This document shows positions 5,036-21,700 of a stretch of DNA of 64,000 nt, in pieces; position 1 is the first letter of the stretch; each line of letters starts with the position of its first letter. The position numbers and the translations under genes were made by a program. Below the pieces are notes generated by a model. That model saw only the letters and a list, made by a program, of their open reading frames with translations. It was not told where the DNA came from and ran no database searches. This stretch comes from Litoreibacter halocynthiae (lineage in GTDB: Bacteria > Pseudomonadota > Alphaproteobacteria > Rhodobacterales > Rhodobacteraceae): positions 124,001-188,000 of the forward strand of contig NZ_SOBH01000003.1 in NCBI RefSeq assembly GCF_004365635.1, given 5' to 3'.

Positions 5036-5132
5036 GGGGCGAAGGCCCTGACAAGCGGGCGGCGACGGTCCGTTGGGATAAAGGCGATTTCATGGTACGA
5101 TCTGTTCATTCAATTGTGAAAGAGATCATTCC

Positions 5133-5528
5133 ATGCCCAATAAAACACCAGTTGCCGCCTCGCGGTTCTCGATCTCGGTCGATGGAGTCGAGGTTGCGAG
5201 TTTCTCCGAATTGCAGGGGATATCGACCAAGGTTGATGTCACTCCGAGAACAACGCCCCGCAAGCTTCTCGCCCATGAGCTGACCCACGCTGTACAGAAA
5301 ACAGTCGGCTACGGCCCTGTCGCGGTGCGGGTCAAGACCGCAGATATCGGCAAATCTGCCGCTCAGAAACTGCGGAGCGCTGTCGGACGCATGCTGATCC
5401 TGACCGCGACCAACGCTCGCGGCGGTGTCGCATCACGCTTTCGGGGCAGGCTTATTGCCCCCGAACGCTCGGCAAATGCCGAGACAGTCACCATTGTCTG
5501 CGATCATCTGCAACGGGTGGCAGTCTGA
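5133..5528 (+). CDS. Tail-tube-like / HELTH-motif chimeric small protein
   Basis: The 131-residue product is unusual. Residues 11-35 (RFSISVDGVEVASFSELQGI and onward) resemble the N-terminus of T4 gp19-type tail-tube proteins, whose pattern is F-x-V-x-I-D-G-x-x-x-x-x-F-S-E-x-x-G-L. Residues 45-55, LLAHELTHAVQ, match the zinc-metallopeptidase signature (HExxH at 48-52) of DUF4157 proteins found with contractile injection systems. Residues 60-131 look beta-rich and I do not recognise them. No other tail gene is nearby. It could be a relic of a phage-tail-like cluster or a small domesticated protein. Its TGA overlaps the likely start of the next gene. Weak ribosome site GAAAGAGA lies upstream of the ATG. 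Confidence 0.55.
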   Translation: MPNKTPVAASRFSISVDGVEVASFSELQGISTKVDVTPRTTPRKLLAHELTHAVQKTVGYGPVAVRVKTADIGKSAAQKLRSAVGRMLILTATNARGGVASRFRGRLIAPERSANAETVTIVCDHLQRVAV

Positions 5529-5941
5529 GCGAGGTTGGTGAACAGGCGCTGGACCGACTGGCGGGCGGATGCCTATGCGGCAAGGTCCGGTTTGTAGCTT
5601 CGGGGCGCCCGTACCGCGTCGGGATCTGTCATTGCCTTGATTGCCGAAAACACCACGGAGCGTTGTTCTATGCGGCAGCGGTGTTTCCGCAGGCCGCGGT
5701 TCAAATTCATGGTGAGACACGAGAGTACGAGCAAAGGTTCTTCTGCCCCCAATGTGGCTCATCCGTCTTCGCGCGCAGTGCCGACGAGGTTGAATTGCAT
5801 TTGGGGGCGCTTGATGCGCCGGACCAGTTGAGGCCCACCTATGAATGCTGGACCGTTCGCCGTGAGGCATGGTTACCGCAGTTTCCGGAATTGGCGCGAT
5901 ATGAACGCGGCCGGAGCAGGCCAGAGAGACGTGAAGAGTAG
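5525..5941 (+). CDS. GFA/CENP-V family zinc protein, probable CTG start
   Basis: The family is named after glutathione-dependent formaldehyde-activating enzyme; most members have no proven reaction. The zinc ligands are complete: GGCLCG near 14-19, CHCLDC near 35-40 and CPQCGS further on, followed by the usual C-terminal EVELHLG and EAWLPQF. The reading frame is open from 5279 but has no ATG, GTG or TTG before 5663, which is inside the fold and after the first two zinc motifs. The CTG at 5525, overlapping the preceding TGA as CTGA, gives 138 residues and a normal N-terminus. The alternative is that the true start has been lost. Confidence 0.7.
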   Translation: MSEVGEQALDRLAGGCLCGKVRFVASGRPYRVGICHCLDCRKHHGALFYAAAVFPQAAVQIHGETREYEQRFFCPQCGSSVFARSADEVELHLGALDAPDQLRPTYECWTVRREAWLPQFPELARYERGRSRPERREE

Positions 5942-18729: not shown

Positions 18730-21700
18730 TCAAGATGTATGGGCTGCGACCAGTGCGCACCTCACGATGTCGTGCGGGAGCGTCATAAGCCGCGCGGATT
18801 GCGTCCAAAGGATTGCCACCTCTACAGATTTTTGCGGATAGAGCTGCTCCAGCATCTCCAAATAGGCCCCCATCTGCGCCAAAACGCCAGACGGTGTTTT
18901 TTCTGCTGTGTCAGGAACGACTACGTTGGACTTGAAATCCACGGCAAGGATTCGATCGTCTTTGATGATCAACCGGTCGATCGTGCCTAATACCACCTGC
19001 CCGCCAAGCGAGGGCAGCTTTGCGGTCAATGTGACCTCCGCCAAAGTGCCATCCGCGAAGATATGGGCCAAGGACGGATCGCCCAGAACCGCCTGCGCCA
19101 ACGGGTACAGGTCTTCCTCATTCGGGCCATACCGACCCACGCGGTTCGCCAAATCCATCGGGTCAGCCGCATGGGGCAAATGCTCCAACAAGCGGTGCAG
19201 TGCTGTACCCCGCGCTTTGGCATCATCTTCCGACAAGGCTGCGCCACTCGGATCGGGCAGCGCCTTTGCCCCTTCAAATTTGGACGGTGAAATCGGCTCT
19301 GGCGTTGGCGCGACGGTCGGGGCTTTGGTCTCCACCCAAGGGGGCAGGGCCGCACGTTCGGGTTTCGCTTCGGCCTCGCGGCGGGGCAGATCTTCGGGCC
19401 ATTGCAAATACTCCAGCCGCCCGTCCACAGCTTCCGCCTTAGCCATTCCGGCCTCCGCCACCGCGTACCAGCCGCCATCTTCCAGCTTAGCAGGCTTGCC
19501 CGCGCCGCAGATAATCAGCCAGCTTTCCGCCCGCGTCATCGCCACATAAAGCAGCCGCATCCGCTCCTCGCGCTGGCGTTTCTTGATCTCGTCGGTCAAG
19601 TCCACCTGAGCAGGCGGCAGGTCCTCGGACTTGGCCTTCCACAGAGCCACCCCGTCGCGGTTCAGCACATCGTCGCGGACCGAGTTCCTGACCTGCCCCG
19701 TATCCGGCAAAATCACGATCGGCGCTTCCAGCCCCTTGGCCCCGTGCACCGTCATCACCCGAATGGCGTCGCCCGCGCTGTCCATCTGGCGCTTGATCGT
19801 CACCTCGTCGCGGGCCAGCCATTCCAGAAAACCCGTCAGCGACGGGATGTCCGCGCGTTCATACGCCATCGCCTGATCCAGCAGCGCGGCGATGCCTTCG
19901 TCGGCCTCGATCCCCAGCCGCGCCAGCAGTTTTTCACGGCCATTGTGGCGGGTCAGAACACGCTCCAGCAGATCATAGGGGCGCAGGTAGTCGGCGCTGT
20001 CGCGCAGATCGCGCAGCATGGCGGTCACTTGCGGGAAGCGGCCTTTCTGGTCCTCCAAGGCGCGGGTCAGGTAGTTCGGTCGGCCATGGGCAAGGTCGAA
20101 TAGCTCCCCTTCCGATAATCCGCACAAAGGGGATCGCAGCACCGCGGCCAGCGACAAGTCATCCTCCGGCGTCGCCAAATAGCGCATTAGCGCGGTCAGG
20201 TCCTTGACCCCAAGCTCCGCCCCGATCCGAAGCCGGTCCGCGCCCGCCATAGGCAGGCCCGCATCCTTACAAGCGCGGATAATCTCGTGGAACAGGGTCG
20301 ATCTGCGCTGCACGAGGATCAGGAAATCCCCCGCCTCGATCCGGCGGGTTTGCTGCACGTCGCGCCCGTCCACGCGCTTCACCTCGGTGATCTGGCCGTG
20401 CAGCAGCCGGTCCTTGATCGTCGCCGCAATTTGACGCGCCAGAATGACGGAGTGGTGGTCGTCGCCCACCGTATCGACCGGATCGAACCAGTCCTTCTTT
20501 TCAGCCTTTTCAGTCTCGTCGATCCAGTCCCAAATGTCGACCCGTCCGGGCAGGTCTTGCTTGAAGGCTACGTGCTCCACGCGGTCGCCCATGCCGCGCA
20601 TCAGATCGCCGGTGAAGCTGGCGTCAACCAGACCCAAAACCGCCTTGGAAGACCGGAAAGAGTGCAACAAGTCCTGCCGCTGCAAAGGCTGCCCGATGGC
20701 GGTCAGGGCTTCGTCGAAATGGGCGCGCATCGCCTCGAACGCGTCGGGGTCCGCCCCTTGGAACGAGTAGATCGACTGCTTCTGGTCGCCGACCACAAAG
20801 ATCGTCCGCTCCGTCTCGGCCCGCGCGCCCTGTCCGGCGGTAAATTCCTGCGCCAGCAAGCGCACCACGTCCCATTGCCGCGGGGCGGTGTCCTGCGCCT
20901 CGTCCACTAGAATGTGATCGATCCCGCCATCCAGACGGAACAGCACCCACGCCGCGACGCTTGGATCGGTCAATAGCCGGCGGGCTTTCAAAATTAGGTC
21001 ATCGAAATCCAGCCATGCATGGGACTGCTTGTGGGAGTCCAACCGAGGCAGATAGGCCTGCGCAAATTTATGCAGCGCCAGATTGCGCGCGTGCGCAGCC
21101 AAAGCCTGCCGCATCGGTCGCGCCTCGGATACGCGCATTCGAAGGGCATCAAAAGGGTCTAACAAGGCTCCAAATGCCTCTTTCGCGCCTTTTGTCGGTG
21201 GATGTAGCTTCGGCAATCCTTCCGATTTTCCGGACGCTGACAGGAACAGTTTTTCCAACTGCGTCAGCAGCGCCAAGCTTGGGGTGGAGCAATCCAGCAT
21301 GGCCAAACTCTGGCCCAGCTGCATGTCACTCTTGCCCGTGCAGCTTTGCAGCACGGCCGCCACATCGCGCAGCAGCGCAGCTTCATTCCCATGGAATACA
21401 GACTCTAAAACAACCGCTTCGGTCACGCCTGAACCCAACCCGCCTGCAGTACGCAAGTCGGCGTCCGTGGCGGCACTGTCAAACAGCTCCTTGCGTCCAA
21501 GCAACTCTTGCAGGAACCCGTCCACTTCAGCCCCGCTGAAATGCTGCGCGAAGGCAGCCATGGCGTCGGAGTCTTGTAATGCGACCTCTTCCATCACGTC
21601 TTCGCGCAAGGCTTTGGCCGCACGGTCGTCCATTTCGGTAAACGCCGGAGACACGCCAGCTTCCAGCGGAAACCGCCGCAACAAGGACGCGCAGAACGAG

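What the first reader, a model, noticed from the sequence alone, without database searches (positions are those of the whole stretch)
5133..5528. Short gene joining a tail-tube-like start to an AHELTHAVQ metallopeptidase-like motif
Residues 11-35 match the N-terminal pattern of gp19-type tail-tube proteins, and residues 45-55 (LLAHELTHAVQ, with HExxH at 48-52) match the signature of DUF4157 proteins that occur with contractile injection systems. The C-terminal 70 residues are unassigned. No other tail gene is near. That both halves come from the same kind of system, in 131 codons, is hard to explain as chance. It could be a collapsed relic of an injection-system cluster or a small functional derivative.
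Basis: partly seen in the sequence, partly recalled or inferred. Interest (0 to 1): 0.72.

Follow-up and report, generated by a model that had tools for sequence, protein, structure and literature searches.

The report
Injection-tube subunit carrying an HExxH helix
A short gene of a marine bacterium appears to make a version of the tube subunit of phage-tail-like injection machines in which the ring-stacking loop is replaced by a helix typical of those machines' cargo, and natural selection seems to preserve it.

Summary
Orthologs exist in Litoreibacter ascidiaceicola (62% identical, same locus) and in a third same-genus species (63%, another locus). dN is 0.23-0.29 against dS 1.6-1.9, and the PRKLLAHELTH codons differ only synonymously. 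The "unassigned" C-terminus is tube too: a tube beside a sheath gene matches both ends, and a model made without any canonical tube has phage-tail, CIS and T6SS chains as its ten best PDB matches. So this is one tube-fold protein whose beta2-beta3 loop, the main ring-to-ring contact of tail tubes (PMC8718954), is replaced by the last helix of DUF4157/eCIS_core. It is not a relic of a collapsed cluster: a complete-looking eCIS cluster lies on another contig. Most likely it is a non-stacking eCIS accessory (adaptor, cap or cargo). That function is inferred: the link with eCIS is weak statistically, and relatives without HExxH occur in two genomes with no detected sheath or canonical tube. The fusion was found in 3 of 21 genomes of the genus and nowhere convincingly outside it. 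Catalysis is unproven: only 17-22 of 79 DUF4157 positions are present and no third metal ligand was identified.

The parts
5133..5528 (+). CDS, 131 aa solitary tube-fold protein with internal HELTH helix
5163..5237 (+). residues 11-35: first strands of the gp19-type tube (RFSISVDGVEVASFSELQGISTKVD)
   Evidence: gp19 match residues 10-65, below cut-off; hhalign to CIS tube P0004 over residues 1-36, E 9.3e-19 for this one comparison; strands 11-16, 19-24, 29-32 in the model
5256..5309 (+). residues 42-59 PRKLLAHELTHAVQKTVG: DUF4157/eCIS_core-like last helix in the place of the beta2-beta3 loop
   Evidence: eCIS_core residues 41-57 = profile 60-76 of 79; helix 47-57 in both models; only synonymous differences in PRKLLAHELTH
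5274..5288 (+). HELTH (HExxH) residues 48-52
   Evidence: kept in the three orthologs, absent from the Gammaproteobacteria relative
5319..5525 (+). residues 63-131: remaining tube strands and helices; shorter than canonical tubes near residue 103
   Evidence: C-terminal ETVTIVCDHLQRVA shared with tube P0004 of a CIS cluster
5073..5101 (+). possible promoter TTGGGA-17-TACGAT
   Evidence: the block TTTTGTGATAGGGTG lies at about the same distance (30-32 nt from the end of the -10-like hexamer to the start codon) in L. ascidiaceicola and G397; consensus match only

Best explanation
The gene encodes a single small tube-fold protein derived from a contractile-injection-system (CIS) inner-tube subunit, not a chance frame and not a relic. 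Shown by the calls: (1) N- and C-terminal parts both match a CIS tube; (2) the beta2-beta3 loop region, the main ring-to-ring contact in most tail tubes, is replaced by a stretch with the DUF4157/eCIS_core signature, predicted as a helix; (3) the protein, and that stretch in particular, is under purifying selection in three species; (4) it is a solitary gene that occupies two different loci in the genus. Inferred: lacking the stacking loop, it cannot build a tube but can still meet tube or tube-lumen partners (as a monomer or a single ring). It therefore works as an accessory of the eCIS encoded elsewhere in the same genome: an adaptor or terminal ring that uses its DUF4157-type helix to hold or mimic DUF4157 cargo (own genome: a 1298-aa DUF4157 protein), or itself cargo. 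Proteolysis is not required by this reading.
For: Orthologs and selection. Tube fold along the length: a tube that directly follows a sheath gene in an Ilumatobacteraceae MAG matches both ends; the solitary relative L035 passes the gp19 cut-off with 35.8 bits; a profile of five solitary proteins (A7) finds two canonical tubes next to sheath genes at E 3.9e-7 and 7.7e-4 over nearly its whole length, but profiles A2 and A3, without L035, find them only weakly and mainly at the N-terminus; the model made from P0001-P0003 only (pLDDT 73.6, pTM 0.71) ranks phage Mu terminator/trunk, Streptomyces CIS, other eCIS and T6SS Hcp/VgrG chains as its ten best. Loop replacement: with the loop's role in PMC8718954 (passages). 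eCIS in the genome. The three carriers all hold the same kind of eCIS tube, found in 7 of 21 genus genomes (hypergeometric P=0.026). DUF4157 proteins fill the tube lumen in AlgoCIS and the growth inhibition by Cgo1 did not need the HExxH motifs (PMC8894135, passages).
Against: The grouping of 7 genomes was made by me after the fact from match length and score; counting any gp19-type tube, 10 of 21 genomes have one and P is 0.09, and with only two independent gains P is 0.1 or 0.21. 4 of the 7 genomes lack the gene. Solitary relatives without HELTH sit in two genomes with no sheath_1C match and no canonical tube match (G596, G794). The own eCIS tube is barely related to it. It lies on another contig than the eCIS cluster. 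Foldseek matches have low TM-scores (0.37-0.48 by query length for the top ten) and rmsd of 7.9-13.7 A; the models are of middling confidence. Ring formation is unproven; the missing segment near residue 103 may also change the barrel.
Confidence: 0.4

Rival explanations
1. A CIS-independent family of solitary mini-tubes: the tube fold has been taken into another role (for example a chaperone or carrier of neighbouring toxin-like proteins), and the HELTH helix is one of several replacements of the dispensable stacking loop.
For: L035 in G596 (99% complete) has the loop simply deleted and stands beside an M35 peptidase, a HELGH protein without a Pfam match and a Peptidase_C58 protein, with no sheath_1C and no other gp19 match. 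L004 has a replacement without HExxH in a MAG without sheath_1C match.
Against: In the window's genus the three carriers all have an eCIS; DUF4157 is described as a marker of eCIS and is found in some T6SS effectors (PMC11297309, PMC8213781, passages). In the window the adjacent genes listed (peroxiredoxin-type, GFA, MscS-type) are not toxin-like (two of the names by inspection).
Confidence: 0.3
2. A tube-polymerisation blocker: a non-stacking subunit that caps or poisons growing tubes of phages or of a rival or own CIS.
For: Loss of the loop that makes ring-to-ring contacts; in T5 and SPP1 its deletion stops tube growth and in YSD1 it leaves rings (PMC8718954, passages). Solitary and differently placed.
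Against: Does not explain why the DUF4157-type helix is kept residue for residue; no match of P0001 in 50,697 phage or 72,556 plasmid records.
Confidence: 0.13
3. A miniature zinc metallopeptidase delivered as part of, or through, the tube (a tube-effector, like T6SS 'evolved Hcp').
For: HExxH is invariant in the three orthologs.
Against: Only profile positions 55-76 (orthologs) or 60-76 (window) of 79 of eCIS_core are present, and no third ligand was identified. Conserved C123 and H125 occur also in tube P0004, which has no HELTH. L004 has no HExxH. Zinc geometry was not testable.
Confidence: 0.1
4. A decaying relic of a tube gene or a recombinant pseudogene.
For: Small, solitary, patchy distribution (3 of 21 genomes).
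Against: No stop or frameshift in the three orthologs; dN/dS 0.13-0.15 (NG86) or 0.09-0.19 (YN00); possible own promoter at both loci.
Confidence: 0.05
5. A chance open reading frame.
For: Single-sequence Pfam scores are below cut-off.
Against: Orthologs, selection, fold.
Confidence: 0.02

Closest known systems
CIS/eCIS inner tube proteins (Phage_T4_gp19 PF06841; TIGR02241; CIS1/CIS5 families)
   Same: Same N-terminal strands, C-terminal ETVTIVCDHLQR block and predicted fold
   Different: No stacking beta2-beta3 loop; a segment near residue 103 is missing; not in a CIS cluster; carries a HELTH helix
DUF4157 / eCIS_core (PF13699), e.g. AlgoCIS Cgo1/Cgo2 (PMC8894135, passages) and the own-genome 1298-aa protein
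   Same: LLAHELTHxxQ-type last helix
   Different: The first 54-59 of 79 profile positions are absent; the named members are longer cargo-type proteins with the whole domain or a central one
T6SS 'evolved Hcp' tube-effector fusions
   Same: Idea of a tube subunit joined to a cargo-type element (analogy, recalled; such papers seen only in the listing)
   Different: Here the added element replaces an internal loop instead of extending the C-terminus, and there is no T6SS evidence
Loop-deleted tail tube proteins made in the laboratory (SPP1, T5, YSD1)
   Same: Same loop affected; such mutants do not form tubes (PMC8718954, passages)
   Different: Natural, selected, and with a new helix in its place

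Membership tests
CIS/gp19-type tube | Sequence match over the family cut-off | tested here: not met
   Window protein 16.8 bits against 28.2; orthologs not listed at E<=1, while the solitary relative L035 passes with 35.8
CIS/gp19-type tube | Tube beta-sandwich fold with outer helix | tested here: met
   Predicted only: models pLDDT 72.1 and 73.6; top ten PDB matches of model 2 are tail, CIS or T6SS chains, with TM-scores 0.37-0.48 and rmsd 7.9-13.7 A
CIS/gp19-type tube | beta2-beta3 stacking loop | tested here: not met
   Replaced by the helix; alignment
CIS/gp19-type tube | Encoded in a CIS cluster beside the sheath gene | tested here: not met
   The one sheath_1C match of the genome is on another contig
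CIS/gp19-type tube | Hexameric ring formation | not testable with these tools
   -
DUF4157/eCIS_core | Over the Pfam cut-off | tested here: inconclusive
   Window protein 19.9, below 22; orthologs 23.3 and 23.1, above
DUF4157/eCIS_core | Whole 79-position domain | tested here: not met
   Only positions 55/56/60 to 76
Zinc metallopeptidase (HExxH) | HExxH conserved in the subfamily | tested here: met
   Invariant in 3 of 3 fusion orthologs; absent from P0003 (L004), L035 and P0004
Zinc metallopeptidase (HExxH) | Third metal ligand and bound zinc | not testable with these tools
   No coordinates or metal modelling; no dedicated conserved residue found by eye
eCIS-associated toxin/cargo | Encoded in or near an eCIS operon (88% of known ones within ten genes, PMC11297309, passage) | tested here: not met
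   Different contig

The most novel reading that the evidence does not exclude
A natural non-stacking tube subunit whose ring-to-ring loop was exchanged for the DUF4157 signature helix, forming a ring or monomer that docks DUF4157 cargo to the end or lumen of an eCIS tube. This would be a cargo-loading part not described for CISs so far as my searches show, and it would say what the DUF4157 helix does: bind tube-type partners rather than cut proteins.
Probability: 0.25. Interest if true: 0.78.

Novelty: new variant of a known kind. Interest (0 to 1): 0.55.

Why it matters
DUF4157 marks eCIS operons and cargo in many phyla but its role is unknown (PMC8213781, PMC11297309, passages). A 131-residue protein that consists of a tube fold plus only the last DUF4157 helix, kept under selection, gives a very small test object for whether that helix is a docking element. 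It also suggests that tube subunits can leave the CIS cluster and persist as solitary genes after losing the stacking loop. The searches for print were: DUF4157 with contractile injection; gp19, tube protein, fusion, HExxH; eCIS, tube protein, orphan; evolved Hcp, tail tube (20 of 22 papers listed); tail tube protein, paralog, effector loading; tail tube with DUF4157 and domain architecture; Litoreibacter with contractile injection (none). No title or abstract start that was listed describes such a protein; I read only passages of four papers, and the library lacks most subscription papers.

Tried and rejected
Relatives outside the genus: 394 genomes of the family (own included) gave 14 further hits at E 3.2e-4 to 9.0e-3, more than the about 4 expected at that cut-off. 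I dropped them from all counts because they are mostly partial, 29-38% identical, and 6 of 14 have stops inside. A check of 428 frames of at least 60 aa from the 17 loci of these 14 hits, G409 and G1148 found no match to the canonical tube profile A4, six weak ones to A2 (best 17.6 bits) and one to A7 (L057, 19.8 bits, in a long frame of G1148). G409 in the genus search (E 0.0038, 4 stops) was dropped likewise. 385 class genomes gave own plus G596; 369 genomes of G794's class gave G794 plus two partial hits in long frames of G1148; 398 phylum genomes gave only the window's genome; 355 genomes of G795's class gave three, all tubes beside sheath genes. These samples overlap. The genome-contig scan used exact 8-residue patterns: 148 stretches, 4 relatives, of which L006 matches only through DUF4157. 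IMG/VR: no relative with A2 or A5; one short match with P0004. Phage and plasmid records: none for P0001. PHROGs: none. Solved structures by sequence: nothing significant, with adenosylhomocysteinases on top at E about 0.8 and a 'Phage tail protein' at 1.2. A simple two-half fusion, a relic and a chance frame were considered and rejected (see rivals). The run of 11 invariant residues is only mildly unusual against shuffled columns (418 of 20,000 shuffles), so I rest the case on the synonymous pattern. The promoter is a consensus match; other hexamer pairs score higher in the two relatives. The stretch upstream of the own eCIS was printed but not compared further. Sheaths were sought with PF17482 only.

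Full report
OBSERVATION. Window 5133-5528 (+) encodes 131 aa. The gp19-like start and LLAHELTHAVQ with HExxH at 48-52 are as described. Single-sequence evidence is modest: eCIS_core E 8.2e-4 and gp19 E 0.0064, both below Pfam cut-offs; TIGR02241 E 0.013 and CIS5 E 0.017, far below cut-off; PHROGs nothing.

IT IS A REAL GENE. A scan of genome contigs (one genome for each of 84,980 species, by the tool's description) gave four relatives. One, in Litoreibacter ascidiaceicola DSM 100566, is 62% identical by alignment over the whole length and sits at the same place, between a peroxiredoxin-type gene and an mscS-type gene (names by inspection); in the window a GFA frame also lies there. In the window's genus, 21 genomes including the window's own were searched: the window genome, G396 (same protein as L. 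ascidiaceicola, and its eCIS tube at the same place as in G793, the genome of L003) and G397 carry it; a fourth weak hit with four stops was discarded. In G397 the gene lies between a GTP-cyclohydrolase-like gene and an arsR-type gene (names by recall), while its peroxiredoxin/mscS site is empty, as in G394. So the gene occupies two loci. Upstream of it, L. ascidiaceicola and G397 share the block TTTTGTGATAGGGTG, and the window has a -35/-10-like pair at about the same distance. Nei-Gojobori dN and dS are 0.228/1.556, 0.250/1.895 and 0.289/1.893 for the three pairs; the 11 codons of PRKLLAHELTH differ at 5-9 nucleotides per pair without a change of residue. Both orthologs pass the eCIS_core cut-off.

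IT IS ONE TUBE-FOLD PROTEIN. The closest tube found in a CIS cluster, P0004, directly follows a sheath-type gene in an Ilumatobacteraceae MAG (sheath_1C match 46 bases or so upstream) and passes gp19 with 95.4 bits. It matches the window family at residues 1-36 and again at the C-terminal ETVTIVCDHLQRVA, but not in between; hhalign aligned only the N-terminal 34 positions. A Gammaproteobacteria MAG relative, P0003, aligns over nearly the whole length at about 40% identity. A same-class genome, G596, encodes a 129-139 aa relative that passes the gp19 cut-off. A profile of the five solitary proteins finds canonical tubes beside sheath genes in two further genomes at E 3.9e-7 and 7.7e-4, covering model positions 6-124 and 11-124 of 129; profiles without G596 find them only weakly and mainly at the N-terminus. 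Two AlphaFold2 models agree: strands 11-16, 19-24, about 29-32, helix 47-57, strand 63-68, helices 69-72 and 74-82, strands 87-93, 99-112, 118-123. The second was made without any canonical tube in the alignment (pLDDT 73.6, pTM 0.71). Its ten best PDB matches are phage Mu terminator/trunk, Streptomyces CIS (two), a Hcp-VgrG-PAAR complex (two chains), Hcp1 (two), PVC (two, one of them so named by recall) and AFP; flavin reductases begin at rank 18. TM-scores are low (0.37-0.48 for the top ten of model 2), rmsd is 7.9-13.7 A, and only one match in each list has E below 0.001, so the ranking, not any single match, carries the argument.

WHAT WAS CHANGED. In canonical tubes of the alignment the stretch after the second strand is a long loop (for example EHRENNMAGKEVIKKLPGKKSW) before the third strand. 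In the window family this is replaced by PRKLLAHELTHAVQKTVG; in P0003 by a stretch keeping the L50, V54 and Q55 positions but with no HExxH; in G596 it is missing. [quoted passage not shown] P0001, P0002, P0005 and P0003 (not G596) also lack a segment near residue 103, 11 residues against P0004, so the oligomeric state cannot be deduced. The replacing stretch matches only the last part of eCIS_core (profile 60-76 in the window protein, 55-76 and 56-76 of 79 in the orthologs). A like signature (RLMAHELTHVVQQTKG) is in the 1298-aa DUF4157 protein of the same genome.

GENOMIC CONTEXT. The window's genome has a complete-looking eCIS cluster at C1 about 1.231-1.255 Mb: sheath, tube (PF06841 126 bits), an AAA-type ATPase, a CIS_tube protein, spike/baseplate-type genes, the DUF4157 protein and a patatin-like phospholipase (ATPase and spike/baseplate named by inspection, not by a family search). 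Seven of 21 genus genomes have this kind of tube (grouped by me by match length and score), including all three carriers; 10 of 21 have some gp19-type tube over the cut-off. The hypergeometric P is 0.026 for the first grouping and 0.09 for the second with three carriers, 0.1 and 0.21 with two independent gains. The association is therefore suggestive only. The own eCIS tube is hardly similar to the window protein (hhalign E 0.053), so it is not a recent copy of it. Against a strict eCIS role, G596 and G794, which have solitary relatives without HELTH, gave no sheath_1C match and no canonical gp19 match; G794 is a MAG, and its only gp19 match is a weak one elsewhere (E 0.09). In G596 the relative lies among an M35 peptidase, a HELGH protein without Pfam match and a Peptidase_C58 protein.

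FUNCTION. DUF4157 proteins fill the lumen of AlgoCIS tubes, and the growth inhibition by one of them did not depend on its HExxH motifs (PMC8894135, passages). Others suggest that DUF4157 helps loading, or acts as a chaperone in cis or trans (PMC11297309 and PMC8213781, passages). Joined with the loop exchange, the best-supported explanation is a non-stacking tube-type accessory that holds or mimics DUF4157 cargo. This step is inference (0.4). A CIS-independent mini-tube (0.3), a tube blocker (0.13) and a tiny peptidase (0.1) remain. Novelty rests on the seven literature searches listed under Why it matters and covers only that library.

Noticed in passing
window 5504-5941 (+): A GFA-family frame (PF04828, 84 bits, profile 2-113 of 115) runs on from inside the end of the solitary gene, but has no ATG/GTG/TTG before 5663; CTG at 5525 is one alternative. 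In L. ascidiaceicola the mscS-type gene follows the solitary gene directly, with no room for it.
   Followed up: partly
L036:6288-9614 (genome G596): Solitary loop-less tube protein next to an M35 peptidase, a HELGH protein and a Peptidase_C58 (YopT-type) protein, in a 99% complete genome with no sheath_1C or other gp19 match.
   Followed up: partly
L061 and L063, between prx and mscS: Empty sites, with a short GC-rich inverted repeat visible by eye, where the solitary gene sits in the window genome and L. ascidiaceicola.
   Followed up: yes
L030:14838-18734 and 18747-19925: End of the own eCIS cluster: 1298-aa DUF4157 protein followed by a patatin-like phospholipase, possibly cargo.
   Followed up: no
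L005:6001-10425: Ilumatobacteraceae CIS cluster with three gp19-type tube genes around an 830-aa protein with an LAHELTHAAQQ signature.
   Followed up: no
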